NCBI RefSeq assembly: GCF_009727055.1
Contig: NC_052351.1
Location: forward strand, 9,091,963 to 9,155,962
Origin: Benincasa hispida
Lineage: Eukaryota; Streptophyta; Magnoliopsida; Cucurbitales; Cucurbitaceae
Direction of reading: 5' to 3'
DNA: 64,000 bases
The position numbers and the translations under genes are program-made. The first letter of the stretch is position 1. Each line of letters opens with the position of its first letter. Below the pieces are notes generated by a model that saw nothing but the letters and a program-made list of their open reading frames with translations, made no database searches and was not told the origin of the DNA. This document shows positions 12,970 to 51,127 of this stretch, in pieces.

Positions 12970-13439
12970 TTAATCAATCTTTAATGATTGTGCCGACTAA
13001 AGAGGATGCGATGATAAAATTATCAAAGTTAAAATAAAATGCGAGAGTGCAAAATTTGGAATAAACAAAGTCAAGGAAAGATACGACCCCCAAATTTGCT
13101 CTGTCGCCCACATTATTTGTGATTGCATCCTTCTTTGCGGCGAGCCGATTTCTTCGATTGCGGTGGCTAAATAAACTTGTTGCGACTTTCGTGTAGCTCC
13201 CCCGCAATCGTTCTCCACGCTCGTTGCAAAAACTTATCGAGAGGGTCAAATAAAAGACAGTAATTTTTTTTTTTTTGGTTTTTGTAGAAATGCAAAGGAG
13301 TAAACAAATATAGAAATGATAATGGATAAAAAGAGGTAGAATTGAGTTCATGAATTGAAGGTTCAAAGTTTCACAAAAATTACGTCCCTGATGAATTTGA
13401 ATTGCATGATTGTTCAAGGACTACCCACTTTTTCTTTAG
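12970..13439 (-). other. 3' UTR of element A, pol-proximal part
   Basis: Non-coding stretch after the integrase stop. It is closely related to 27,310-27,790 in element B and 45,150-45,600 in element G. A short phrase acccccaaatttgc (13,085-13,098) resembles the polypurine tract. Confidence 0.6.
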
Positions 13440-14730
13440 TCAGAATTCCTCAGGTACACGGAGGTGTTCTCGCAAGTCTTCTCCGTGATATATTTTGACT
13501 CTTTGCTCATTGACTTTGAATACGTTGGTCTCGTCCTCATTGGATAATTGAACCGTGCCATGTGGGAATACCTCTCTGATTATAAAGGGTCCGAACCAAC
13601 GTGACTTTAATTCACTGGGAAAGAGTCGTAGCCACGAATTGAATAATAAGACCTTTTGTCCGACTTGGAGATTCTTCTCGCATAATTATTTGTCATGCCA
13701 ACGTTTTGTGTGCTCCTTGTAGATTTTGGCATTCTCATATGCGTGAGTTCTTCATTCATCAAGCTCAACCAGCTAAAGTTTCCTTGCTTCTCATGCGGCC
13801 TTTAAGTAAAAATTAAGCTTTTTCACTGCCCACAGTGCTTTATGCTCCAACTCAAGCGGTAAATGACATGCCTTTCCGAACACCAGTGCATACGGGGACA
13901 TGCCTATAGGTGTCTTATAGGCGGTCTTGTATGCCTACAAGGCATCATCCAACTTCATTGCCCAATCTTTATGTGAAGGTTTTACCACCTTCTCTAATAT
14001 CAGTTTGATTTACCTGTTGGACACTTCAGCTTGACCATTTGTTTGTGGAGGGTATGTGGTGGCCACCTTATGGAGGATATTATACATGAGCAACAATTTG
14101 TTGATGATGTGTTTAACAAAGTGAGAGCCTTCATCACTTATTATGACACGTGGAGTGCCAAAACGAGTGAAAATATTCTTCCTTAAGAACTTGGAGACTA
14201 CCGCTGCATCGCTTGCGACGCACGATACCGCTTCTACCCATTTGGAAATGTAGTCGACGGCTAATAGAATGTATTTGTGACCATTCGATGGTGGAAATGG
14301 TCCCATGAAGTCTATGCCCCGGACGTCGAACAACTCCAATTCTAAGATGATTTTCATGGGCATTGCATATTTCCATGAAATGTTTCCCATGTGTTGGCAC
14401 CGGTCACATTTCATTGCATAGTCTCTTATGTCCTTAAATAATGTTAGCCAAAAATAACCACTTTGTAACATCTTTGCTGCTGTGCGTTGGCCTCTAAAGT
14501 GTCCTCCATATGGCGAGTCATGGCATTGTGATAGTATGCGTTAGTGAGCAGCGTTTGGTATGCATAGGCATAAAATCTAGTTTGACCCCCTCTATAAAGA
14601 TTTGGCTCATCCCAATAATATGATCTACATTCATGTATGAGCCGCCTTTTTTGGTGGGCTGTGTAATCCTCAGGGAATTGTTTGTAAACTAGAAAATTGA
14701 CCACGTCCGCATACCATGGTAATTCTTCAA
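13440..14730 (-). pseudogene. Element A integrase
   Basis: Minus-strand Ty3/gypsy integrase, the enzyme that joins element DNA to the chromosome. The zinc region at the upper end is damaged (YYWDEPNLYRGG, then frameshifts; CDRC remains). The catalytic core is visible in the frame 14,010-14,471: Asp in GIDFMGPF, Asp in IISDEGSHF and Glu in GQAEVSN. The last two are 35 residues apart, the classic D,D35E spacing. The C-terminal region runs to a TGA at 13,440-13,442 after REHLRVPEEF-like codons, with several stops. Catalytic residues are kept but the reading frame is not. The mirror image of this gene at 22-23.4 kb is an artefact. Confidence 0.88.
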
Positions 14731-14739
14731 GTTTAAACA

Positions 14740-15238
14740 GCTACTCATCTGGGAAGGTTACGTTCACCTCTGACTGGTTGCGGTCGACTTCTTGTTTTTC
14801 TAATCTTGACAAATGGTCCGCAACCTGGTTCTCCGTCCCCTTGCGATCAATGATTTCCATGTTGAATTCTTGAAGGAAGAGAACCCATCAAATCAATCTG
14901 AGCTTCACATCTTTCTTTGTCATCAAATATTTTATCATCGAGTGGTCAATGTGAACGATTACTTTAGTTCCCAGCAAGTAAGCTCTAAATTTTTCCAACG
15001 CAAATATCATCGCAAGCAATTCTTTTTATGTGGTAGTGTAATTTATTTAAGCAGGGTTCAAGGTTTTACTCGCATATGCGATGGGGTGTAGCATTGTTTT
15101 CTTCTTTTGTGCCAGCACTGCCCCCATCGAATAATCGTTTGCGTCGCACATTAGTTCAAAGGGTTGTGTCCAGTCCGGTGCGATCAACACAGGTGCAGAT
15201 GTTAATGCGTTCTTCAGTATCTTGAATGCGTTGAGCAT
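14740..15238 (-). pseudogene. Element A RNase H
   Basis: Minus-strand RNase H domain, which removes RNA template during reverse transcription. 15,047-15,238 reads KNALTSAPVLIAPDW, then ELMCDANDYSMGAVLAQ with the first catalytic Asp, and SKTLNPA. The remainder, down to about 14,760, is interrupted by stops and frameshifts but keeps a 'HIDHSMIKYLM'-like frame. Element G carries a less damaged version at 51,739-52,086. Confidence 0.8.
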
Positions 15239-16380
15239 TGGTCATCAAAGTCAAATGTTCTTTCTGCCTCTAACAATGCACTCAATGGTCGTACAATCTT
15301 TGAAAAGTCTTTCACAAGACATCGATAAAAGCCAGCATGTCCTAAGAAACTACTGACAACCTTCACATTTGTTGAAGGTGGGAGCTTTTTAATCGCCTCA
15401 ATATTTTCCTTGTCCATCTCCAATCCATCCTTGGAGACTTTGTGCCCAAGCACAATACCTTCCTTCACCATGAAGTGGCATTTCTCCCAATTTAGCACAA
15501 GGTTCATCTCTTCACATATTTTCAGTATCTTCTGTGGATTGTTGAGATAGACTTCGTATGTTTGCCCATACACCAAGAAGTCATCCATGAAAATTTCTAT
15601 AGAATATTCAAGATACTCAGAAAAGATGGCCATCATACACCTTTGGAAAGTGCTCGACACATTGCATAGGCTGAACAGCATAAGTCGAAATGCAAATGTT
15701 CCTTAGGGGCAGGTGAATGTGGTTTTCTCTTGATCTTCAGGAGCAATCATGATTGGTTATAGCCGGCATATCCATCCAAGAATTAGCAATAATCATTTCC
15801 TGCTAGGCGGTCTAGCATTTGGTCAATAAAAGGAAAGGGGAAATGATCCTTCTTTGTTGCCGTATTCAGTTTGCAGTAGTCCATGCAGATCCGCTAGCCA
15901 GTGATGGTCCTCATCAGTATTAGTTCATTGTTTGCATTTGAAACTACTGTCAACCCTCCTTTCTTTGGCACACATTGCACGAGGCTGACCCATATGCTGT
16001 AGGCGATTAGATAGATAATCCCTGCATCCAACCATGTGATTATCTCCTTCTTCACGACCTCCTTCATCGCAGGGTTGAGTCTGCATTGATGTTCGATCGA
16101 TCCTTTCTGATTGTCCTCGAGACGTATCCCGTGCATGCAGTATGTGGGGCTGATTCCTTTAATGTCTGCTAGCGTCCAACCAATTGCTTTTATGTGCTTT
16201 TTCAGGATGCTCAGCAGTGCATTTTCTTGATCTTCTTGAAGTACAAAGGAAATTATTACTGGTAGCATTTCATTCTGCCCCAGAAAAGCATACTTCAGGT
16301 GGTTTTGAAGGGTTTTTAGCTCTACTGTTGGTGGTTGTTCCAAGGATACTTTTGGTGTTTTTCTTTCTTCATTCATTGTC
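15214..16380 (-). pseudogene. Element A reverse transcriptase
   Basis: Minus-strand Ty3/gypsy RT. The N-terminal part (15,894-16,376) has LKTLQNHLKYAFLG, LNPAMKEVVKKEI and VQCVPKKGG, ending before the usual WRVCIDYRKLN box. Between 15,894 and 15,690 several stops break the frame. The core (15,214-15,681) carries STFQRCMMAIF and the catalytic box FMDD at 15,580-15,591, then VLGHKVSKDGLEMD and SFLGHAGFYR. The Asp pair is intact; the gene is not, because of the stops. It overlaps the RNase H frame at 15,214-15,238 owing to a frameshift. Confidence 0.88.
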
Positions 16381-16636
16381 AGCTTGTCTTCTTTGGTTGT
16401 TGTTTCTGTGATCGCATTGTATACTACTATGAATGCAATCGCATCCTCATCTTCATTTCATCTTTAGACTTTTCTTCTTCATTCAAATTGGGTTCATCAT
16501 CGGACTCGATGAGGTCTTCTTCTTCTGTATATTTCATGGCTCTGATAATATCAAACCTGAGCTTCTGTTCATTCACGCTCAGTGTGATATTTCCTTTGTA
16601 CACATAAATCTGAGCGCGACCAGTGGATAAAAATGG
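16381..16636 (-). other. Element A linker between protease and RT
   Basis: Continues the polyprotein as an acidic, low-complexity region (Glu, Asp, Lys) broken by stops. No domain recognised. Confidence 0.45.
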
Positions 16637-17110
16637 TCATCCCAGAATGATGGGTACATCCTTGTCCGCTTCATAATCAAGGATGATGAAGTCTGCCGGT
16701 AACATAAATTTGTCAATCGTGACCAGGACATCCTTCATCTTCCCTTCTGGATACACAAGGGATCTATCAGCTAGCTTGAGAGTCACCGTCGTGGGCGCCA
16801 GCTGGCCTACAATGAGCTGTTTAAAAATGGAGAGGGGCATTAAGTTGATGCTAGCCTCGAGATCACAAAACCTTGACCAATGTATAACCAGTTGATGGAG
16901 TAGGGTATTGTGAAACTTTTGGGGTCGTGCATTTTCGGTGGAATTATGGATTTTGAACTTTGCGTCAATGCCACCATTGCAAACTTACCAGTGCTTCTTT
17001 TCTTCATCACCATGTCCTTTAGAAAATTTGCATGCTTTGACATCTGTTCAATTGATTCAGTGAAAGGAATGTTGATATGCAACTGTTTTAGGATGTCCAT
17101 GAAGCGTTGA
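16637..17110 (-). pseudogene. Element A aspartic protease
   Basis: Minus-strand retroviral-type protease that would cut the polyprotein. 16,840-17,100 reads MDILKQLHINIPFTESIEQM and then the MKKRSTGKF region; 16,637-16,840 reads MPLSIFKQL, LADRSLVYPEGK, DFIILDYEADKDVPIILG. A frameshift falls at the active site. In the shifted frame the usual Asp-Leu-Gly-Ala reads Asp-Leu-Glu-Ala, so the active-site Gly is lost. Element B keeps an intact Asp-Leu-Gly-Ala at the same place. Confidence 0.85.
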
Positions 17111-17181
17111 TACTACACTTCATCATTTTTCTTCTTTTTAAGTCTTTGAGGGAATGGTGGCAGCTGTATTTTCACGGTTCC

Positions 17182-18226
17182 CTATTCTTTTGGCTTCAAA
17201 GTGGATGCAATCTCCGGTTCCATTGTCTTCTGTTCTTTTGTTTCTTCCTGAGTCAACGGGGTCTGTGGTTCCGTCGCAACTAGAGCAGCCCAGCTAGGCT
17301 CCTTCTTCTCCTCCGCCATTGTCTTTCCACTTCGCAACGTCACAACTTCACATTGCTCTTTTCTCGTACTCCCTGGGTTGTGTGGAAGCTCTGTTGAACT
17401 CGGCAGTGCCCCTTGTGGTCTACTTTTGAGTTCGCCCGCAATCTGTCCTATCTGAATTTCGAGATTGAAGATGGACGTCGCTTGATTCTGAAGCACTTTT
17501 CATTCTTTTCAATATATTGCTTCAGTAAACTCTCCAAAGATGAAGATTGTGGCACCCGTGAACTACTGGCTTAAATTTTTGTTTGACCGTTTGTTTGCAG
17601 GAAAAATCCTGGTAGCCCTTCTTTTGTGCCCTTGGTTGAAAATTTTGTTGTTGATTTTTCCACGCGAAGTTTGGGTGGTTTCTCCAACCAGGGTTGTGTA
17701 TTGGAAAGCGGATTATTCTTCACAAAATAGATAGACTGTGGGTTCTTCAGATACTCTTCCATTAGATGGCCTTCACCACAAGTAGCGCAACTTGCACTCA
17801 TTTTTTCGATTGCGTTGACCTAACCCCTATGCGTTCCTGGGCTGCTGATTGCGATTCCTTTTATCAAATTCATCATCACAGTCATTTGGTTTTGCAGGGA
17901 TGCAATGGCCCTATTATTTGCGTCACTGTCCTTAATTCTCAATCTATGATCACTTTCTCTCCAGTCCTCGTGATTTTTCAAAATGCGATCAAGTATGTTC
18001 TTAGCCTCATCATATGTTTTGTCAAACAGACCTCCAGCTGCTGCCGCATTGGCAGTCGTTTGTGATGCCGGGTACAAACCGTGGTAGAAAATTTCCATCT
18101 GTAAACAATTTGGTAAGCCATTATGCGGACAATCTCTTACCAACCTTTTAAACCTCGCCCAGGCGTCACTGAGTGATTCATCAATATCCTGTTCAAAATT
18201 AGTGATCAACTTCCTCCTTCTTGCGT
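17182..18226 (-). pseudogene. Element A gag, central and C-terminal part
   Basis: Minus-strand Athila-type gag (particle protein). 17,820-18,209 begins ITNFEQDIDESLSDAWARFK, then CPHNGLPNCLQMEIFYHGL and AAAAGGLFDKTYDEA. 17,571-17,801 holds the zinc knuckle CATCGEGH, whose last Cys is Tyr (EEY). 17,182-17,496 has the coiled-coil-like LEIQIGQIAGEL and the linker KEQCEVVTLRSGK leading to protease. Frameshifts separate the parts. At 18,226 it is cut by an adapter sequence. The N-terminal part is at 23,586-24,015; only about 15 bases seem to be missing between the two. Confidence 0.88.
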
Positions 18227-18264
18227 CTGTCTCTTATACACATCTAGATGTGTATAAGAGACAG
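18227..18264. other. Nextera mate-pair junction adapter (artefact)
   Basis: Two 19-base Tn5 mosaic ends lie back to back: CTGTCTCTTATACACATCT at 18,227-18,245 and its exact reverse complement at 18,246-18,264. This is the circularisation junction of Nextera mate-pair libraries, not plant DNA. It translates to the telltale peptide SYTHLDVYKRQ on the minus strand. Confidence 0.98.
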
Positions 18265-18416
18265 GCGTTTGACCAATATATAACCCTTCGATTGAGCAGG
18301 GTATTGTGAAACTTCCGGGGTCGTGCATTTTCGGTGGAATTATGGATTTTGAACTTTGCGTCAATGCCACCATTGCAAACTTACCAGTGCTTCTTTTCTT
18401 CATCACCATGTCCCGA
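18265..18416. other. Read-length stray fragment of the protease region (artefact)
   Basis: About 150 bp that match 16,873-17,026 in the same orientation but with several differences (for example ttcgattgagcagg against agttgatggagtagg), so it comes from another copy of the family. Its length fits one short read trapped at the junction. Confidence 0.85.
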
Positions 18417-21400
18417 CGAGAAGTAGAAGGAGGAAGTTGATCACTAAATTTGAACAGGATATTGATGAATCATCAGTGACGCCTGGCGAGTTTTAAAAGT
18501 TGGTAAGAGATTGTCCGCATAATGGCTTTACCAAATTGTTTACAGATGGAAATTTTCTACCACGGTTTGTACCCGGCATACAAACGACTGCCAATGCGGC
18601 AGCAGCTGGAGGTCTGTTTGACAAAACATATGATGAGCTAAGAAACATACTTGATCGCATTTTGAAAAATCACGAGGACTGGAGAGAAAGTGATCATAGA
18701 TTGAGAATTAAGGACAAGTTGGACGCAAATAATAGGGCCATTGCATCCTGCAAAACCAAATGACTGTGATGATGAATTTGATAAAAGGAATCGCAATCAG
18801 CAGCCCAGAACGCATAGGGGTTAGGTCAACGCAATCGAAAAATGAGTGCAAGTTGCGCTACTTGTGGTGAAAGGCATCTAATGGAAGAGTATCTGGAAGA
18901 ACCCACAGTCTATCTATTTTTGTGAAGAAATATCCGCTTTCCAATACACAACCCTGGTTGGAGAAACACCCAAACTTCGCGGTGGAAAAATCTCAACAAC
19001 AAAATTTTTCAACCAAGGGCACAAAAGAAGGGCTACCAGGAATTTTTCCTGCAAACAAACGGTCAAACAAAAATTTAAGCCAGTAGTTCACGGGTGCCAC
19101 AATCTTCATCTTTGGAGAGTTTACTGAAGCAAATATATTGAAAAGAATGAAAAGTGCTTCAGAATCAAGCGACGTCCCTTTCAATCTCGAAATTCAGCTA
19201 GGACAGATTTGCGGGCGAACTCAAAAGTAGACCACAAGGGGCACTGCCGAGTTCAACAGAGCTTCCACACAACCCAGGGAGTACGAGAAAAGAGCAATGT
19301 GAAGTTGTGACGTTGCGAAAGTGGAAAGACAATGGCGGAGGAGAAGAAGGAGCCTAGCTGGGCTGCTCTAGTTGCGACGGAACCACAGACCACGTTGACT
19401 CAGGAAGAAACAAAAGAACAGGAGACAATGGAACCGGAGATTGCATCCACTTTGAAGCCAAAAGAATAGGAACCGTGAAAATACAGCTGCCACCATTCCC
19501 TCAAAGACTTAAAAAGAAGAAAAATGATGAAGTGTAGTATCAACGCTTCATGGACATCCTAAAACAGTTGCATATCAACATTCCTTTCACTGAATCAATT
19601 GAACAGATGTCAAAGCATGCAATTTTCTAAAGGACATGGTGATGAAGAAAAGAAGCACTGGTAAGTTTGCAAATGGTGGCATTGACGCAAAGTTCAAAAT
19701 CCATAATTCCACCGAAAATGCACGACCCCAAAAGTTTCACAATACCCTACTCCATCAACTGGGTTATACATTGGTCAAGGTTTTGTGATTCTCGAGGCTA
19801 AGCATCAACTTAATGCCCCTCTCCATTTTTAAACAGCTCATTGAGGCCAGCTGGCGCCCACGACGGTGGACTCTCAAGCTAGCTGATAGATCCCTTGTGG
19901 TATCCAGAAGGGAAGATGAAGGATGTCCTGGTCACGATTGACAATTATGTTACACGGCAGACTTCATCATCCTTGGATTATGAAGGGACAAGGATGATAC
20001 CCATCATTTCGGGTGACCATTTTTATCCACTGGTCGCTGCTCAGATTTATGTTACAAAGAAATATCACACTGAGCGTGAATGGAACAGAAGCTCAGGTTT
20101 ATATTATCAGAGCCATGAAATAATACAGAAGAAGGAAAAGACCTCATCGAGATCACGATGATGAACCCAATTTGAATGGAAGAAGAAAAAGTCTAAAGAT
20201 GAAATGAAGATGAGGATGCGATGCATTCATAGTAGTAACAATGCGATCACAGAAACAACACCAAAGAAGACAACTGACAATGAATGAAGAAAGAAAAAAC
20301 CAAAAGTATCCTTGGAACAACCACCAACAGTAGATGCTAAAAACCCTCAAACCACCTTGAAAGTATGCTTTTCTGGGCAGAATTGAATGCACAGTATAAT
20401 TTCCAATTTGTACTTCAAGGAAGATCAAAAAATACACTGCTGGCATCACTGAAAGCACATAAAAGCAATTGGTATTGACGCTAGCAGACATTAAAGGAAT
20501 CAGACCCCACTACTGCATGCACGGGATACTCTCGAGGACAATCAGAAAGGATCGATCGAAACATCAATGCAGACTCAACCCTGCGATAAGGAGAGATCGT
20601 GAAGAAAGGAGATAATCACATGAGTCTGATGAGGGAATATTAATCTTAATCGCCACAGCATATGGAGATCAGCCTCGTGAATGTGTGCCAAAAGAAGGAG
20701 GGTTGACAGTAGTTTAAATGACAAAAATAACTAATACTGATGAGGACATCATGGCTAAGCGGATTGCATGGAACTACTCAAACTGAATAACGGCAACAAG
20801 AAGGGATCATTCCCTTTCCTTTTATTGACCAAAGTGCTATGACCGCCTAGCAGGAAATGATTATTGCTAATTCTTGTGTGGATATGCCGGCTATAACCAA
20901 TCATTGATTGCTCCTGAAGATCTAAGAGAAAACCACATTCAGCCCTTAAGCCCCTAAAGGAAGCATGTCTCGACTTTGTCGTTACTTAGTCTGTTCAAGC
21001 GCCCTCAGCAAATGCTGCTCCGGACAACGTTTCCTAGAAGGTGATGATGGCGTCACTATGCTTGTCCTCTGATAGTCTTTGAATATTCTATAGAAATTTT
21101 CATGGAGACTTCATTGTGATATGGGCAAACATACGAAAGATTCATATCTCAACAATCCCACAGAAGATATGAAAATATATGTGAAGAGATGAAACCTTGT
21201 GGCTAAATTGGAGAAAATGCCACTCATGTGAAGGAAGTATTGTGCTTGCGGCACAAAGTCTCTCCAGGAATGGATTGGAGATGGAACAAGGAAAATATTG
21301 AGGCGAATTAAAAAGCTTCCACCTTCAAACAAATGTGAGGTTAGTCGTAGTTTCTTTAGGGAACATGCTGGCTTTATCGATGTCTTGTGAAAAAACTTTC

Positions 21401-23560
21401 AAAGATTTACGACATTGAGTGCATTGTTAGAGGCTCAGAAGAGACATTTGACTTGATGACCAATGTCAACGCATTCAAGAATACTGAGAAGAACGCATTA
21501 ACTCATGCACCTGTGTGTTGATCGCACCGGACTGGACACCAACCATTTGGAACTAATGTGCGACGCCAACGACTTATTCGATGGGGGCAGTGCTGGCACA
21601 AAAGAAAAGAAAACAATGCATAACCACCAATCGATAATTGCGAGTAAAACCTTTGAACCCTGCTAAATAAAATTTACACTACCACATAAAAAATGCTTTG
21701 CGAGTGATATTTGCGTTGAGAAAAATTAGAGACTTACTGCTGGGACTAAAGTAATCGTTCACATTGACCAACTCGAGAATATAAAATATTTGAATGACAA
21801 CAGAAAAGATCGTGAAGCTCAATTGATTTGTGGTTCATCTTCCTTCAAGAATTCAAATGGAATCATTGTCGCAAGGGGACGGAGAACCAGGTTGCGGACA
21901 CCATTGTCAAGAATTAGAAAACAAGAATACGACCGGCAAAACCAGATCAAGAAGTGGAAGGAACCTTCCCAGATGAGTAGAATGTTTAACTTGAAGAGAT
22001 TTACCATGGTATGCGGACGTGGTCATTTTTCTAGTTTACAACAATTTCCCTGAAGGATTACACAGCCCACCAAAAAAAGGCGGCTCATACAAGAAGTTAG
22101 ATATATTATTGGGATGAGCAAATCTTTATAGAGTGGTTCAAAACTAGATTTATTGACCTATGCGATACCAAACAGCTGCTCACTAACGCATACTATCACA
22201 ATTGCCAGACTCGCATATGGAGGACAACTTTAGAGGCCAACGCACAGCAGCAAGATTTACAAAGTGGTTATTTTTGGACTACATTATTAAGGACATAAAG
22301 GAGACTTATGCAAATGAAATGTAGACGAAGGTTGCCAACACATGGAAACATTTCATTTGGAAAATATGCAATGCCCATAGAAATCATCTTAGAATTGAGA
22401 TTGATTCAGACGTCGGAGGCATAGACTTCATGGACCATTTGGTCCACATCGATGTCACAAATACATTCTATTCAAAAAAAAAAGCCGAATCGACTAACAT
22501 TTCCAAAATGGGTAGAAGCGATATCGATGAGTCAGCAAGGCGATGCAGCGGTTAGTCTCCAAGTTCTTAAAGGAAAATATTATTCACTCGTTTTGGCACT
22601 CCACGTGTCATATTAATAATGATGGAAGGTCTTCACTTTGTTAACACATCATCAACAAAATGTTGCCTCATGTATAATATCCTCCATAAAGAGTGGGCCA
22701 CCACATACCCTCCACAAAACAAATGGTTCAAGGCTGAAGTGTCCAACAGAGTAAAATCAAAACTGATATTCTAGAGAAGTTGGTAAAACCTTCTACTAAA
22801 GATTGGGCTAATGAAGTTGGATGATGCCTTGTTAGGCATCATACAAGACCGCCTATAAGGACACCTATAGCATGTCCCCCGATATGGCACTGGATGTTCG
22901 GCAAGGCATGGTCAACTTTACGCTATGAGTTGGAGAAGCATTAAGCACTGTGAAGGATGAAAAAAGGCATAATTTTTACTTAAAGGCCGCATGAGAAGCA
23001 AGTGAACACTTTAGCTGGTGTGGACTTGAATGAATGAAGAATCCACGCATAATGAGGATGCCAAAAATCTACAAGAGCACATCAACAAGTTGGCATTGAC
23101 AAATATTATGCCGAGGAGAAGAATCTCCAAGTCGGGACCAAAAGCGTCTATATTATTTCAATCGTGGCTACGACTCTTCCCAGTGAATTAAAGTTCACGT
23201 TGGATCAGGACCTTTATAATCAGAGAGGTATTTCCCACATGGGCACGTTTCAATATATCCAATGAGGACGAGACCAACGTATTCAAAGTTCAATGAGAGC
23301 AAAGAGTCAATATATCACGTGAAGAAGACTTGCAGAGAACCCCTATCCGTGTACCTGGAATTCTGACCTAAAGAAAAAGTGGGTTTAGTCTATAACAATC
23401 ATGCAATTCAAATTCATCAGGACGTAATTTTTTTGAAATTAACCTTCAATTCATGAACTCAAATTCTACCTCTTTGATTATCCATATATCATTTCTATAT
23501 TTTGTTATACTCTTGCAATCTTCTACAAAACAAAAAAAAAACATTACGAATCTTTATTGC
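18417..23560 (+). other. Error-rich mirror copy of element A pol and gag (artefact)
   Basis: Reverse complement of 13,245-18,226 with frequent small indels, so no frame longer than about 90 codons survives. It reads gag (18.4-19.4 kb), protease (19.5-20.0), RT (20.3-21.4), RNase H (21.4-21.9) and integrase (22.0-23.3) in order on the plus strand. These should not be counted as genes. Confidence 0.9.
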
Positions 23561-23585
23561 NNNNNNNNNNNNNNNNNNNNNNNNN
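23561..23585. other. Assembly gap of 25 N
   Basis: 25 unknown bases at the outer end of the mirror arm. Confidence 1.
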
Positions 23586-24015
23586 GGGAAGTACTTCTTC
23601 ATGAACTTCTCCACTACCTGTTCCCATGATGTAATCTCCCCTGGTTCAAGAGAATAAGCCCATTTTCGTGCCTAGTCACACAACGAAAATGGGAACAATG
23701 TTAATCGAACCTCCTCAGCGGAGATGTTTGAAAACATAAACGTATTGCAAATCTCAATAAAACTCCGGAGGTGGGCGTGCGGATCCTCGTCATGCCTACT
23801 GCCAAACTATCCGACAGTTTGAATCATCTGCGGCATCACCGGTTTCATATCGAATCTCGATCCGTCTAAGGCTGGCCTCATGATTCTTGGTGAGAATCAT
23901 AAAGGTTGGGCGACGCATAGTCCCGGATGGGCCTATTGTGATCGTTCGCCAAGAGGATGGGATTCGCCATGATATTCTTTGCATTTGGTGCTCTATCTTC
24001 TGGTTGTTCTACCAT
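23586..24015 (-). pseudogene. Element A gag, N-terminal part
   Basis: Starts with ATG at 24,015 (MVEQPEDRAPNAKNIMANP), as in the gag of element C at 63,439, and continues RPIRDYASPNLYD. A frameshift follows within the family's 'SPGI.RP' region. Later frames read HAHL and FIEICNTF-like codons, then WAYSLEPGEITSWEQVVEKF and KKYFP at the gap edge. The next expected residues are those found at 18,226 and below. Confidence 0.85.
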
Positions 24016-26422: not shown

Positions 26423-27958
26423 ACAATGCTTGTCCTCAACCATAAGCTAAAGATTTTCTTTAGAAAGTCGACCGCCTTCTCTTTCCTAGATTTCTCAAGG
26501 ATGCCTTATTCAAATACTATACACCAAAATCTCCTTAATTCTTATCTAGGTCTCTTCTTAAAATATTTCTAAAATTTAGGGACCGCAAGTTTCACCTTCA
26601 AAAAGACTTTACTAGATTCTAGGGCATCGCATGATTTATTTCATAAAAAAAACTATTTCACTGGGTATTTTCAAATGATTTTTTTATTCTTGCGTATTTT
26701 AGACACATTATTTTTATTTTTATTATTTTTATTATTTTATTTTTTTTATGACCTTGCGCTGATCCAAGTGCCTAGCCTTCGTTTTGGCTTGCCTCCACAT
26801 GTGTCATGCGGACATCCAACTATGAGTAAGGCGCTCTTTCTCAGTCTAAACTCATGCCCATTTGGCAGCAGAGTTGTGATCATTTATTTATGCGTTGATN
26901 ATCATTTATTTATGCGTTGATCACGATTCCTACCTTCGTTTTGGCTTGCCCCCACGTGTGTCATGCGGACATCCAACTATGAGTAGGATCCGATCGCAAC
27001 GTTATGATTTTTCTTCTTTTTTTTTAAAACCTAAAAATAGCAAGGTCGAAAATGAATACCGCACCCCTAAATTTAAAACGCAACAATGTCCCCATTGTTA
27101 AAAGATTGAAAGAAGTCATGTGATGCTCTTAGAAAGTTTCGTAAAAAGTCAGTTTGAAAGAAAGCTAGCAGACCACTAACTTCTAGAGATATTTCATGAG
27201 ATGACTGTCCTAAAATTAAGTTGACTCTAGTATATATGAAAAAAAATAGAGGCATGCATTTCATCATTGAAATCATAATTGGCAAAGAGAAATAATGCGG
27301 TGACTTACTAAATTAATCAATGTTAAATGATTGCGCCGATCAAAGAGGATGCGATGCTAAGATGATCAAAGTTTAAATGTGATGCGATAGTGCAAAATTT
27401 GGCATAAATAAAGTCAAGGAAAGATACAACCCCCAAATTTGCGCTGTCGCCCACATTATTTGTGAACGCATCCTTCTTTGCGACGAACTGCTATCTTTTG
27501 ATTGCGGTGACGGAATAAAGTAATTGCGTCTTTTGTGTAGTGCCTCCGCAATCGTTCACCTCAATCGTTGCAAAGAAAACATTGAGAGGGTTAAATACAA
27601 AAACAAAGTTAACCAAATTGTTTACTACGATCGTTCAACACGATCGCATTCTTCCCCTCTTTTCAGTAAAGACAAATATACAATAAAAGTTAAAAGAAAG
27701 GTAATGAAAGTTCATGAAGCATTGATATAAAAAAAAAAGATATTCCAAATGGATTGCGTCCCTGATGAATTTGAGTCGCATAGTAACGCAGGAACTGCTT
27801 ATTTCAATCTGGACTTTTTTCATCCACGACGACTTTCTCTTCTTTTCTCAATCTTCTAGGATCTTGATTGCCTTAATCCAGAGCTTTTCCCCATTAACGT
27901 TCATCACGATCTCCCTTTTGCGTACATCAATTTGAGCGCGACCGGTCGAGAGGAATGG
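26423..27958 (-). other. 3' UTR of element B and pol deletion scar
   Basis: Contains the duplicated motif at 26,776-26,826 and 26,933-26,983. At 27,760-27,830 the sequence related to the region after integrase in element A (gtccctgatgaatttga) passes directly into the region after protease, so the whole RT-RNase H-IN block was deleted. Confidence 0.7.
26879..26921. other. Single-N gap with a repeated 21-bp flank (artefact)
   Basis: The 21 bases atcatttatttatgcgttgat occur on both sides of one N at 26,900. Elements A and G have the phrase once, so this is an unmerged contig overlap. Confidence 0.9.
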
Positions 27959-38628: not shown

Positions 38629-40574
38629 TGATAACTTGTAGAAATACAAGTTATTTATACTGTTTTATTTAGATAATGCGACCAAAAGAAAGGAAAGTTG
38701 CGTCAATTGTATACAAATTGGCTAAGAAATGCAAGAATTATAAATTGTCGTCAATACACCCACTAACACCATTACGATGGTAGAAAAGAATGTTTCTGTT
38801 CTATTTTGTAGGAAATCAAGTCACCACATACGTTCATGGCTTAAGATAAAAGAACAACGCATATACGTCGCATTGCGCCCATCATTCACGAATGAATAGA
38901 CGATCAACGCAATAACGGCGTATGCGACAATCAATTAAGAGCTAAATGATCAACGCAATATCAACCGCATGCGGTAATAAAAAACAACAATGCATATGAG
39001 CAAACGATCGAAGATGTGAAGAGCAACTCAATTGCGGAGGATTCTGATGTGTGTACAGCTAACCGTTGTGCATTTCTGACGGGATTATTGCGTAACAGAA
39101 GGAATATTCACTCCACCATTTTAGGAACTGCCTTAACAATAAAGTGGGGACCAAAATGCAAAGAGTCGAGGCTTAGCCTATAAATAGCTTCGGCCATTCC
39201 ACTGAAAAAGGATGTTTGAATACAGAGAAAAGTGTATATACTGATCTGAGGGAGAGACTGGTTGGGCGGCTAATCAGAGTAGATCCGAGAATAATTAAGA
39301 GACAAGGGCGAGAGGTGAGTCTCTGGGCAAAGAATCCTTCTAATCCCCGCCGTTGAAGCTCTGTATGAAGGTCACTTCTACCAGAAGAGCAAGCTTGAGA
39401 GGGAAGCTCTTCTCTTCATCAATTCCACACGCCAGCAAGCAAAACCACCGTCAAGATTTATGTTAAGATGTTGACACTCTTCTGTATTTGTTTCTATCTC
39501 TTTATCATCACTTGTACTCATCTTCTTAATCTCTATCATTCACACCATGTATCATACGCTTAATTCTATAATTAAATGTTATGATCATTTCCATCTCTAT
39601 CTTTTTGTCTATTTCCGTTCATCCATAATCCACTTTCTCCATGATGTTTTCTTAATCCCACAGGTAATTAGCAAGAATTAAACAAGTAAATTAATTGGGT
39701 TAAGGAAATAATTATGTTTAGTTAAAGCATGCTAGACGACATCTTCACCTGTGAGAGCAGAAGTGAAGATGCCATTCCGCCTATCGAGAGAGGGTTGGAA
39801 GAATGCATTAACTAAAGCGAGAAGTACTTCTAGAGATGGAAGCAACCTTGCGTTCACCACGTTCATCCCTGTTTTACCATAGAGATATGGGAACGCAGCC
39901 GCTCACCGAGAGGTATACGCCAAGGGAAAGCGGAACCTTAGTTATATCTTTAACGCGATTAACAACCTTGCGATGTTTGTACTAATTATTTCTTCACATT
40001 TTTGTTTCATACATAAAGACTTGTCATCGCATACCATGATCCTTTGTATAAACTTTGCAGTTGATCTCGAACTCAGCATCATGTATATCATGTATCTTGT
40101 ATCTTGCATCACGTTAGCTTTGGTTTATTTTTATCGTATTTTATTTTATTAATGCAACTTTAGTTTATCTGCACAATTTTACTTTATCGCAATTTAATTT
40201 CCTGTACAAACACAATCTTTATTAATTGTAAAAAGACCGATCGTATATATCACAAATGTAACACACTAACGACAACAATCCCTGTGTTCAACCTCAGATC
40301 AATCCGAGAAACTTGCGTTGGAATTATACTTGGTTTCAGTGCAAGGAAACTTGTGACAACGCATTACTCCATAGCATACTACAAACATTTAGTTAACAAC
40401 GCATATGTCTAGAAGTAGTCATGCATAACACAACATCCACATTCCATTTCCATATTTACGTCATCAAGTTTATGGCAACATGAGCTTGTATGATTCATTC
40501 ATCTGTATTCATATTTGTCCGCATGCTCTAAGTAGTGTGAATAAGCATAAGATACACAATTTTATGCCACAACA
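38629..40574 (+). mobile_element. Solo LTR D2 (1,946 bp)
   Basis: TGATAACTTGTAG...ATGCCACAACA, flanked by aacac (38,624-38,628) and gatac (40,575-40,579), which differ only by transitions. Its length equals that of D3 after removing T2. TATA box 39,179-39,186. The motif ccctgtgttcaacct is at about 40,280-40,294. It holds no gag or pol. Confidence 0.85.
39179..39186 (+). promoter_or_regulatory. TATA box of D2
   Basis: TATAAATA in agcctataaatagctt; D3 has the same on its strand at 50,561-50,568. Confidence 0.55.
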
Positions 40575-43830: not shown

Positions 43831-44010
43831 CACCAAGTTGCGCCGACTCTATGCGGCAATCCTTCTTGGGCAGATGTTGGCAAACACAAATCACTCCAAA
43901 GCTGTCTCTTATACACATCTAGATGTGTATAAGAGACACACCAAGTTGCGCCGACTCTATGCGGCAATCCTTCTTGGGCAGATGTTGGCAAACACAAATC
44001 ACTACAAAGC
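43831..44010. other. Adapter junction with 72-bp artefactual duplication
   Basis: Mosaic ends at 43,902-43,920 and 43,921-43,938 lie between two copies of the same 72 bases (43,831-43,902 and 43,939-44,010, one difference: ctcc against ctac). LTR A and B have this segment once. Peptides such as VSYTHLDVYKR in several frames come from the adapter. Confidence 0.95.
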
Positions 44011-46439: not shown

Positions 46440-47879
46440 TGTTGTGGCATAAAATTGTGTATCTTATGCTTATTCACACTACGTACAGCATGTGGACAAA
46501 TATGAATATGGATGAAAGAATCATACAAGCTCATGTTGCCATAAACTTGATGACGTAAAGATGGAAATGGAATGTGGATGCTGTGTTAGGCATGACTACT
46601 TCTAGATATATGCGTTGTTAACTAAATGCTTGTAGTATGCTATAGAGTAATGCATTGTCACAAGTTTCCTTGTGCTGAAACCAAGTATAATTCCAACGCA
46701 AGTTTCTCAGAGTGATCCGAGGTCGAACACAGGGATTGTTGTCGTTAGTGTGTTACATTTGTGATATATGCGACCGGTGTTTTTACAATTAAGAAAGATT
46801 GTGTTTGTACAGAAAATTAAATTGCGGTAAAGTAAAATTGTGCAGATAAACTAAAGTTGTGTTAATAAAATAAAGTGCGATGAAAATAAACCTAAGCTAA
46901 TGTGATGCAAGATACAAGATACATGATATACATGATGTTGAGTTCGAGACCGACCGTGAAGTTTATACAAAGGATCGTGGTATGCGATGGCAAGTCTTTA
47001 TGTATGAATCAGAAATGGGAAGGAATAATTAGTACAAACATCGCAAGATTGTTAATTGCGTTAAAGATATAACTAAGGTTCCGCTTTCCCTTGGCGTACA
47101 CCTCTTGGTGATCGGCCACATTTCCATATCTCTATGGTAAAACAGGGATGAACGTGATGAACGCAAGGTTGCTTCCATCTCTGGAAGTACTTCTTGATTT
47201 AGTTAACGCATTCTTCCAACCCTTTATCGATAGGCAGAATGACATCTTCACTTCTGCTCTCACAGGTGAAGATGTCGTCTAGCATGCTTTGACTAAACAT
47301 AATTATTTCCTTAGCCCAATTAATTACTTGCTTAATTCATGCTAATTATCCAAGGGATTAAGAAAACATCATGGAGAAACTGAATTATGGATGAACGAAA
47401 TAGACAGAAAGATTGAGGTGAAAATGATCATAACAATTAATAATAAGATTAAGCATCTGATACATGGTATGAATGATAGAGATTAAGAAGATGAGTACAA
47501 GTGATGATAAAGAGATAGAAACAAATATAAAAGAGTTTCAACGTCTTGACACAGATCTGGACAGTGTTTTTGCTTGCCAGCGCGTGGAATGGATAAAGAG
47601 AAGAGCTTCCCTCTCAGGCTTGCTCGTCTGGTAGAGGTGACCTTCGTACAAAGCTTCAACAACGGGGATCAGAATGATTCTTTTCCCAGAGACTCACCTC
47701 TCGTATGAAACCTGGATTTCCATTTTCCCTACTTAAGCAGGTGGTTAAGGAAATTAACTAAGTGAAAGTTAAAATCTATGTTGAAGAGAAGGAAATTTCT
47801 AAGTGTTGAATAGATTTTCCTTGAGTAGTTTTGAGTTAAGCTTTAATTGATGAAAAATTGGCTAAGTGTTGGACTAGGT

Positions 47880-49000
47880 ATTGCTATGCGTTGGCCATAA
47901 GACCTTGGAGAGATTACTTGGGTAAAGGGAGAAGAAAAAGTGTGAATTTGGAAGCTTGACTTTTGGGGAAAAACTTGGAAAATTGGCTAAGTATAAACCT
48001 ATATGATGGATGCGTTGGATGTGTTGGATGCGATGGATACATTGGAAGGGTGGTATGCATCCATACGGCTGAAGGAAGAAAGTTGAAAGTGATGCGTTGG
48101 AAGGTTGGATGGCACGAGGGTCGGTTGTGCAGAAGGCATACGGATGCAAGGGTAGGCGAGGATGCGGGCAGGGCATACGCTGGAGGGTGGCATGCGTCGA
48201 TGCACACGCCCATGCAACGAGTGGCCAAGCGAGCCCTGCGAGAGATGCTAAGCTGCCGTGCCAAGCGATGCGTCAATGCCAAGCTGCCATGCCAAGCGCC
48301 TATGCATTGATGCGGCCAAGCACCTATGCATCGATGCGATCGAGCGAGGCCATACGTTGGTGTCGTGCGACCTTGATATGCGTTGGAAGTTGATGATGGC
48401 TTGCACGATGGATACGTTGGATGCAGAAACTCTGTTAAGGCATAGGCCATGCGATGGGCTAGGTTGGACACATGGTGGTTGGCCCTTACGTTGGTTAAGG
48501 CTTGCGATGACTGAGTGAGTTGGGTTGCAATGGTGTTATGTTGAAAACCAAGGGTTGCTATGCGTTGATGGTCTACTATGCGTTGAACATGAAGGGTTTG
48601 TGGATGCATATGAAGGATGAGCTCATATGGAGGACGTCATTCGGACATGTGGCTTGTTAGAAGGAATTCTTAAACCTTAAGAAAATTAGGTGGATGCATA
48701 AGAAGACATGTAAAATTTGAGGGCTATGTGTTGGTGAAAGGAGAAGAAGACACTTTGGCTTGCGCTGATGTAAGAATGCGTTGATAGTGTGAGAAAAAGA
48801 CACTTGGATATGTGGCCAAGTAGGAGGTGTTGACCGTGGAGCAATCTTGGTTGCCTATAAATAGAGCCAAAGACTTCAGATGAGAACTCAAATTCTCTTC
48901 AAAGGACATAAAGAAGAGTGTGTGAGGACTAATTGGGAGAAGATTATGCGTTGATGGAAGAACGCATGCGTTGGTAGCAAGACCATGCGTTGGTCAAGAA
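47880..49000. repeat. ATGCGTTGG-rich degenerate repeat cluster in T2
   Basis: atgcgttgg recurs at about 47,886, 48,009, 48,091, 48,378, 48,968 and 48,986, with many atgcgttga, gatgcg, catgcg and aagc(t)gcc phrases. No fixed period. Confidence 0.75.
48856..48863 (+). promoter_or_regulatory. TATA box of T2
   Basis: cctataaatagagcc, equivalent to T1 at 11,568. Confidence 0.55.
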
Positions 49001-50560
49001 GTTTCAAGAGGGGAGATGCTGTCGGGCAGAAAAGATAGAAAGTAGCATCAACATGGAATGAGAAGTTCTCCCATAATACTCGTGCGCTTGGAGTGATTCC
49101 AAATCCACCTGAAAGCTATGAGAGTATAGTTTTCATGGTGAGGCTACCAGAGAAGAAGCTCTAAGGGATCAGGCTTGAAATTGAGGAAAAGAAAGAAGGG
49201 TCAGGCTGTCGGGTAAGCTGGGCCAGTCTTGAAGATTTTGAGATTCCGGTCAAACCATGAAGATTTCTGAGCTAAGAATTTATGGTAAGCTTCCTGAGAT
49301 ATTTTAGAACATGTTTGCAGAAGGAAGTATCTTAAAATAAGGTCTAGAACTATGAGTAATATAAGCTGATATTTGAATCTGGAATTTAGGGTTCATAATG
49401 GAAACCATGGAAACCTAAGGAACTTCGGAAAGGAAAGTTCTTAACCAATCAAGGTGAGTGGTTATTGTGTTGTTGTATTGTTGATGTAATTTCTATATAT
49501 AATATATATAGGAGATAATGTTAAATTGGCATGATCAGGGATATATGTTTATCTTGTTACTGTGCTTGTTAAGATATTGTTTGTATGTTTGGAAACTGAA
49601 ATTGTACCCAGGATATATAGTTAGCATGCTTGAAAAGGGTACTTGACGGGGAAATATAGTCGGCTTCGGTCGGCAGAAAATGATAGTCAGTGACGACCGA
49701 CGGAAAATATAGTCAAGATACCTAAGCATGGCTAGCGAAAAATAGTTGTGGATGTGCACATTGGCGAGATAATAGGGTACAGGGAAAGTTTCCACAGGAA
49801 TTTTTGATACATTGCTTTTGTGTACGTGTGAAAGTACTGGGAAAAATGTAGGATCATGCCAAGGATAACCAATGGTAAAGCTGGGGATGTTTTTATTATA
49901 TGATAACCAGCGGTCAAGCTGGGGATTGATTGTTTTAACCAGCGGTCGAGCTGGGGATTGTCTAGGGGTCTGGCTGGAAAATAATATTGAACTTGTGGTA
50001 ATGTTCTTATTGACGATGCATTGCTTTTCCAAAAGTATATTTCTGTCGACAAAGTTATTTGTTTATTTAAAGGCACCACTCACTGGGCTTTATAGCTCAT
50101 GTTTTTCATGTTTTATGTCCCCCCCCAGGTAGCGAAAAGTGAGGAGTTCCAGGGTGCTGCTAAGGTCAAGGTCTGCCACAAGCCATAGTTACACTTTCGG
50201 AGGGTTTTACAGTTGTTTTTGTAAACTTGTAATTAAGTCTTGGAGTTGTATAAATGTTACATTGTTGTAATAAAATGGGCCTACTTAATCAGTTGACTGT
50301 TCAATTTGTACATTGTATCAGAGTTATTTCCGCAAAAATTTTTTAGGTAGTAAGTGTCAACGAAAGGATTGATAACTACTGTCAGTCATGCCCTTTCTCA
50401 GGCTCACAGGGTAGTCTGGGATGGGGTGTGACATCTCGGCCTTGTCTCTTAATTCTTCCCGGATCTACTCTGATTGGTCATTCAACCAGTCTCTCCCTCA
50501 GATCAGTATATACACTTTTCTCTGTATTCAAGCATCCTTTTTCAGTGGAATGGCCAGAGC

Positions 50561-50568
50561 TATTTATA
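50561..50568 (-). promoter_or_regulatory. TATA box of D3
   Basis: tatttata on the plus strand. Confidence 0.55.
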
Positions 50569-51127
50569 GGCTAAGCTTTGACTCTTTGTATTGTGGTCCC
50601 CATTTTATTGTTAAGGTAGTTCCTGCAATGGTGGAGTGAATATTCCTTCTATTACGCAATCAATCCCATCAGAAATGCACAAGGTCAGCTGTACACGCGT
50701 CAGAATCCTCTACATTTACGTTGTAGCTCTTTACATCTTCAATCGTTTGCCCACATGCGGTATTGTTTTCTATTACCACATGCGGTTGAGATTGCATTGA
50801 TCACTTAGCTCTTGATCGTTTGTCGTATACACCGTCATTACGTTGATCGTCTATTCATTCCTGAATGATGGGCGTCATGTAATGTAGATGCGTTGTTCTT
50901 TTTATCTTGAGCCTTGAATGTATGCGGTGACTTGATTTCCTAAAAAACAGACTTGAAATATTCTTTTCTACCATCGTAATAGTGTCAGTGGATGTATTGA
51001 CAACAATTTATAATTCTTGCATTTCTTAGTTAATTTCTATACAATTGACGCAACTTTTCTTTCTTTTGGCCGCAATATCTAAATAAAACAGTAAAAATAA
51101 CTTGTATTTCTACAAATTATCAATAGT

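What the first reader, a model, noticed from the sequence alone, without database searches (positions are those of the whole stretch)
13245..23585. A 5-kb mirror-image block is an assembly artefact, and gag reads through without it
18,417-23,560 is the reverse complement of 13,245-18,226 with dense small indels, ends in 25 Ns and begins beside an adapter. The gag frame leaving off at 23,586 (KKYFP) and resuming at 18,226 (RRRKLITNFEQ) lines up with gag of element C with only about 15 bases missing. The true element therefore has no inverted repeat here. A long read that turned back on itself and was used to fill a gap explains everything.
Basis: partly seen in the sequence, partly recalled or inferred. 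Interest (0 to 1): 0.88.

Follow-up and report, generated by a model that had tools for sequence, protein, structure and literature searches.

The report
Flipped gap patch mimics inverted repeat
A 5-kb mirror-image stretch in a published wax gourd genome is not real DNA structure but a long-read gap patch that was most likely pasted in backwards beside leftover sequencing-kit adapter, and the same adapter is left in the assembly thousands of times.

Summary
In detail: 18425-23558 is the reverse complement of 13249-18221 (34 mismatches, 402 indel events), followed by 25 Ns; outgroups place 263 of 268 indel columns in the right copy. It is an artefact. The window lies in the wax gourd B227 assembly: Illumina contigs, mate-pair scaffolds, PBJelly gap filling with PacBio subreads. 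In the 20 best of 38 other listed genome copies, all 20 have the two gag edges (18226, 23586) 10-11 bases apart, so no block belongs there. The proposed cause, one read folding back, fits less well: error steps from 12.0 to 3.5 per 100 bases towards 18425, no hairpin adapter lies at the turn, PBJelly splits fold-back reads, and the block starts within a few bases of the right contig's edge. A patch anchored on the right contig and inserted, with its Ns, in reverse complement explains these together (inferred). Not a real feature; an assembly warning.

The parts
13249..18226 (-). Left arm: part of an LTR retroelement (gag end, RT, integrase on the minus strand; RT before integrase, the Ty3-type order, recalled), without the dense indels of the block
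   Evidence: Pfam RVT_1 in 15214-15681, rve in 14010-14471; outgroup copies agree with this arm at 263 of 268 polarised indel columns
18227..18264 (.). Exact 38-bp mate-pair junction adapter (two 19-bp mosaic ends head to head)
   Evidence: given as a mate-pair ring adapter in PMC7357533 (passage); 9,991 exact copies genome-wide
18265..18413 (+). False contig tail: direct-orientation copy of 16869-17017 reached through the adapter (jump back of 1,358 bp)
18414..23560 (-). Mirror-image block: error-rich long-read patch of the same locus, most likely an extension of the right contig's left edge placed in reverse complement
23561..23585 (.). 25 Ns, the smallest stretch that PBJelly counts as a gap
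   Evidence: PMC3504050
23586..23758 (-). Right contig: first part of gag (residues 1-58 of the element C yardstick), with one in-frame stop
17350..18226 (-). Second part of gag (from residue 62 of the element C yardstick), with in-frame stops: a decayed copy
43832..44009 (.). Second adapter (43902-43939, last base differs) flanked by a 70-bp direct duplication (43832-43901 and 43940-44009): closed loop of the same origin

Best explanation
Two stacked assembly errors. (2) That false tail kept long reads from being anchored on the left side of the gap (inferred from PBJelly's published rule that reads must align to within 25 bp of the gap). PacBio reads anchored on the clean right contig (edge 23586) therefore extended leftwards over the true neighbour, re-reading 18221 down to 13249 as a patch that is better near the anchor and raw further out. 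The patch could not meet the left contig, so 25 Ns were left at its outer end, and patch plus Ns went into the scaffold in reverse complement (inferred). In the plant the two gag edges lie about 11 bases apart and there is no inverted repeat.
For: Published methods: mate-pair libraries, ALLPATHS-LG, PacBio RSII subreads of mean 6.1 kb, PBJelly (PMC6856369 passages). Genome identified by size and by B. hispida nr proteins on contigs whose lengths equal those of C1, C3, C6, C10, C11 and C12. 20 of 20 copies examined (the best 20 of 38 listed others) have the two edges 10-11 bases apart. Indel polarity 263 of 268 in the right arm. Right arm 96% to the left arm in 18026-18226, next best copy 92%: same locus. 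Error step 12.0 to 3.5 per 100 bases at 16320, 2dLL 110. The bases just before 18425 match the relatives' stretch between the two edges: whole-stretch control 1 of 997 (11 bases) and 0 of 998 (14 bases) random stretches as good; with the 5-8 bases next to the mirrored arm kept and only the outer ones replaced, 0-10 of 1000 (11 bases) and 0-2 of 1000 (14 bases); best-fitting start 9 of 11 bases beyond 18226. Turning patch plus Ns round as one unit accounts for orientation, N position, start point and error gradient together.
Against: No raw reads or PBJelly logs. The flip is inferred at one place only; no second 25-N patch lay among the fetched G000 loci. The start-of-block test rests on 11-16 error-prone bases and weakens for other lengths (10 of 1000 at 8 bases, 4 of 998 at 16, 30 and 50 of 1000 at 18 and 20; 4-36 of 1000 at 16), and a fold-back turning at that spot would pass it too. 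The error step is not smooth (4.0 per 100 at 17600-18222, 1.6 at 16900-17600). That PBJelly leaves exactly 25 Ns in such cases is recalled; its code was not inspected. The B227 paper's text does not name Nextera (0 occurrences), says contigs came from paired-end reads, and gives mate-pair inserts of 2 and 8 kb, so how a junction with a 1.36-kb jump entered a contig is not explained.
Confidence: 0.78

Rival explanations
1. Fold-back read: a PacBio subread with a missed hairpin adapter read the left arm forward, turned and read it back; its second half was used as an extension of the left contig.
For: Gives an inverted, error-rich copy of the flank; about 1% of PacBio reads are such reads (PMC3504050 section 5). 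It would also give the observed start of the block if it turned about 9-11 bases beyond 18226.
Against: Error steps along the block, whereas one read should be about uniform; no SMRTbell adapter (sequence recalled) at the turn: score 20 against a control mean of 17.6 (max 32 of 300) and 71 expected at 13% error, though it could have been trimmed; PBJelly detects and splits such reads; the turn would have to fall by luck at the right contig's edge; left-flank anchoring is hindered by 187 bases of adapter and tail.
Confidence: 0.17
2. A real recent inverted duplication inside the element, assembled from raw reads on one side only.
For: Substitution difference between arms is low (34 in 4,816 aligned bases), as for a young duplication.
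Against: Indels are almost all private to the right arm; the join runs through kit adapter; 20 of 20 relatives examined lack it; it would have to start and stop at contig edges.
Confidence: 0.02
3. A second, oppositely oriented copy of the element inserted head to head.
For: The family is large: 38 other copies scored, 3,479 first-look candidates.
Against: Nearest other copy is 92% identical, the right arm 96% with mostly indel differences; the turn lies inside gag, not at an element end.
Confidence: 0.01

Closest known systems
Untrimmed mate-pair junction adapter in assemblies (Nextera-type, 38 bp; the kit name is recalled)
   Same: Exact 38-mer; flanks repeat each other in direct orientation where a repeat is found; also present in at least 120 stretches of prokaryote genomes (scan stopped at its limit)
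   Different: 9,991 copies in one published plant assembly
PBJelly overfilled gap with flank extension (PMC3504050)
   Same: 25 Ns left, PacBio-type insertion-rich error, PBJelly used for this assembly
   Different: The extension is reverse-complemented relative to the flank it belongs to; not described in the PBJelly passages that I read
PacBio missed-adapter palindromic read
   Same: Inverted, error-rich copy of the flank
   Different: No hairpin adapter found, stepwise error, start at the contig edge

Membership tests
Mate-pair junction adapter artefact | Exact 38-bp palindromic junction sequence | tested here: met
   18227-18264
Mate-pair junction adapter artefact | Flanks are two ends of one fragment, so the right flank repeats upstream sequence in direct orientation | tested here: met
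   Jump back 1,358 bp at 18227 and 70 bp at 43902; 9 of the 20 sampled loci likewise, 11 of 20 without a direct copy within 4 kb; of 26 junctions an inverted copy only at the window block
PBJelly flank-extension patch | PacBio reads and PBJelly used for this assembly | tested here: met
   PMC6856369 methods passage
PBJelly flank-extension patch | 25-N remnant and PacBio-type error, insertions over deletions, weak homopolymer bias | tested here: met
   25 Ns; 254 insertion and 148 deletion events; deletion rate 2.9% in single bases, 3.3-4.8% in runs of 3-5
PBJelly flank-extension patch | Patch continues the flank it is anchored on | tested here: inconclusive
   It does so for the right contig only if read in reverse complement; start-of-block tests
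Fold-back (missed-adapter) read | Uniform error along the mirrored half | tested here: not met
   Step at 16320
Fold-back (missed-adapter) read | Hairpin adapter at the turn | tested here: not met
   (adapter sequence recalled); trimming cannot be excluded
Genuine inverted repeat in the element | Present in other copies | tested here: not met
   0 of the 20 relatives examined

The most novel reading that the evidence does not exclude
Reverse-complemented flank-extension patches are a systematic class of error in this assembly (and perhaps in others gap-filled the same way), seeding false inverted repeats with raw-read error next to 25-N gaps wherever an untrimmed junction tail blocked one side.
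Probability: 0.3. Interest if true: 0.4.

Novelty: not a real feature. Interest (0 to 1): 0.22.

Why it matters
It removes a false inverted repeat from any analysis of element structure, hairpins or inversions at this locus, and flags that the B227 assembly carries 9,991 exact kit junctions (about one per 91 kb). In 8 of 20 sampled loci the junction sits inside a spurious 61-215-bp tandem duplication. Indel, tandem-duplication and gene-model calls on this reference should mask these sites.

Tried and rejected
Rejected: a biological mosaic end (exact copies, also in unrelated bacteria); a second element copy; a misoriented short-read contig as the first part of the block (its 1.6-5.5 error events per 100 bases, look too high for a short-read contig). 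Led nowhere: a search for other 25-N patches in the fetched G000 loci (only a 51-N run, a single N and N runs at locus ends); a promoter/terminator scan; the cork oak guess; the genome-wide count of the single 19-bp mosaic end did not complete. The control was flawed (a new random stretch for each relative made its spread too small) and is replaced. Literature: the searches were seen as listings with abstract starts; these listings showed no paper on junction adapters in B227 or on flipped PBJelly patches, which is no proof that there is none. Of the papers I saw passages of PMC6856369, PMC9905507, PMC7357533 and PMC8848313, and passages plus section 5 of PMC3504050.

Full report
What was checked. 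The window (64,000 bases) has one run of 25 Ns at 23561-23585 and a single N at 26900. Blastn of the window against itself gives one outstanding inverted pair, 18425-23541 with 18221-13267, 89.4% identical with 274 gap openings. Realigned, the pair runs 13249-18221 against 23558-18425 with 4782 matches, 34 mismatches, 318 inserted and 157 missing bases in the right copy (254 and 148 events). Of the 28 window pairs of 500 columns or more, four have a member wholly inside the block; these have 4.07-6.27 gap openings per 100 columns. The other 24 have 0-3.95, and their gap-opening to mismatch ratio is at most 0.21, against 1.51 for the two arms.

Which arm is wrong. Five stretches of other copies in the window served as outgroups. 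Of 268 arm-specific indel columns the outgroup agreed with the left arm at 263 (211 of 215 insertions, 52 of 53 deletions). Substitution columns in those alignments favoured the left arm 375 to 58, with 91 agreeing with neither; as the direct alignment has only 34 mismatches in all, most of these are misaligned indels, and they were not used. Deletions are only mildly more frequent in runs (2.9% of single bases, 4.8% in runs of three, 3.3% in runs of five), and 142 of 318 inserted bases differ from both neighbours. That is the insertion-rich, weakly homopolymer-bound error of raw PacBio reads (recalled).

Where it comes from. The gag of the element at 55746-56846 hits Benincasa hispida proteins on contigs whose lengths equal those of C1, C3 (the window's own contig), C6, C10, C11 and C12. 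The window's genome has 912,946,352 bases, as the B227 wax gourd assembly does (912.95 Mb, PMC9905507 Table 2, passage). Its paper describes Illumina paired-end and mate-pair libraries (2 and 8 kb), ALLPATHS-LG contigs from paired-end reads, mate-pair scaffolding and gap filling with PacBio RSII subreads (mean 6.1 kb) by PBJelly; the word Nextera does not occur in it (PMC6856369). PBJelly counts 25 or more Ns as a gap, and flank-extending reads must align to within 25 bp of the gap (PMC3504050).

The adapter. 18227-18264 is two 19-bp mosaic ends head to head, the sequence given as a mate-pair ring adapter in PMC7357533 (passage). The genome holds 9,991 exact copies and none of the reversed pattern. 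I examined the first 20 listed loci on contig C1, 10 kb each (24 junctions; not a random sample), and the two junctions in the window. In 8 of 20 loci the adapter sits inside a closed direct duplication of 61-215 bp, one locus (L024) has a jump back of 439 bp only, and 11 of 20 show no direct copy within 4 kb. In the window, 43902 is a closed 70-bp loop and 18227 a jump back of 1,358 bp. Among the 26 junctions inverted flanks were seen only at the window's block. In 144 junctions from 120 prokaryote stretches, 56 had direct copies (26 closed loops, 30 one-sided), 88 had none and 1 had an inverted copy; 3 junctions too near an end were left out. This is the geometry of a circularised fragment: the fragment's end, the adapter, the fragment's start. 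So 18265-18413 is a false contig tail. Its best match elsewhere is 97%, better than to the window's own 16873-17017 (94%), so the fragment may have come from another copy. How junction sequence entered contigs said to be built from paired-end reads is not explained.

The relatives. 18026-18226 has 40 scored matches of 3,479 candidates; two are the window's arms (100% and 96%), and the best of the 38 others is 92%. I fetched the first 20 of these 38. In 20 of 20 the equivalents of 18226 and 23586 lie 11 (18 copies) or 10 (2 copies) bases apart; in one (L042) only 71 of the 200 bases of the right piece aligned. Two loci were read over 4 kb: L046, one of the 20, and L045, a further copy; both show the two pieces side by side without a block, and L045 has a junction adapter of its own with a 181-bp duplication. 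At protein level the pieces align to gag residues 1-58 and from 62 on. Both pieces carry in-frame stops, so the copy is decayed in any case.

Mechanism. Three things speak against a single folded-back read. First, error events drop from 12.0 to 3.5 per 100 bases at 16320 (2dLL 110), as expected for several reads near an anchor and one read far out; within this trend 17600-18222 (4.0) is worse than 16900-17600 (1.6), so it is not smooth. Second, PBJelly splits missed-adapter reads, and no hairpin adapter lies at the turn. Third, the block begins at about 18414, and its first bases resemble the relatives' stretch between the two edges. Against random stretches: 1 of 997 as good at 11 bases, 0 of 998 at 14, but 10 of 1000 at 8, 4 of 998 at 16, 30 of 1000 at 18 and 50 of 1000 at 20. 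That comparison included five bases that belong to the mirrored arm itself, so I repeated it keeping the inner 5-8 bases and replacing only the outer ones: 0-10 of 1000 at 11 bases, 0-2 of 1000 at 14, 4-36 of 1000 at 16 (the control was flawed and is not used). The best-fitting start lies 9 bases beyond 18226, 10 and 11 being close. The block therefore starts within a few bases of the right contig's edge. A fold-back turning at that very spot would look the same, so this argues from coincidence, not from exclusion.

If patch and Ns are taken as one unit and turned round, the patch is a plain leftward extension of the right contig, with the Ns at its outer end and error growing with distance from the anchor. 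The false tail (187 bases of adapter and copy) explains why the left contig could not be reached. The flip itself is inferred from this one place.

Verdict. Artefact with high confidence (my judgement: about 0.97). The flipped patch is the preferred route (0.78), the fold-back read the main rival (0.17).

Noticed in passing
43832-44009: Second junction adapter (last base differs) flanked by a 70-bp direct duplication: a 108-base spurious insertion in a repeated stretch.
   Followed up: yes
G000 whole genome; L019 4732-5401: 9,991 exact mate-pair junctions in the wax gourd B227 assembly; at one locus four junctions in tandem at a 167-bp period, as if a 129-bp mini-circle had been read round and round.
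   Followed up: partly
L047-L166 (genome contigs), L167-L173 (viral contigs): The same 38-mer sits in at least 120 stretches of prokaryote reference genomes (scan stopped at its limit; several Enterococcus, Scytonema, Collinsella, Ideonella MAG records) and in 7 IMG/VR stretches.
   Followed up: partly
38629-40574 and 46440-51122: A separate inverted pair, up to 93% complementary, with almost no indels in its best part (2 gaps in 1,266 columns): looks like two real repeat copies in opposite orientation, unlike the block.
   Followed up: no
L008 1356-1918: 51-N gap with duplicated contig ends on both sides (97-99%): looks like an overlap left unmerged.
   Followed up: no
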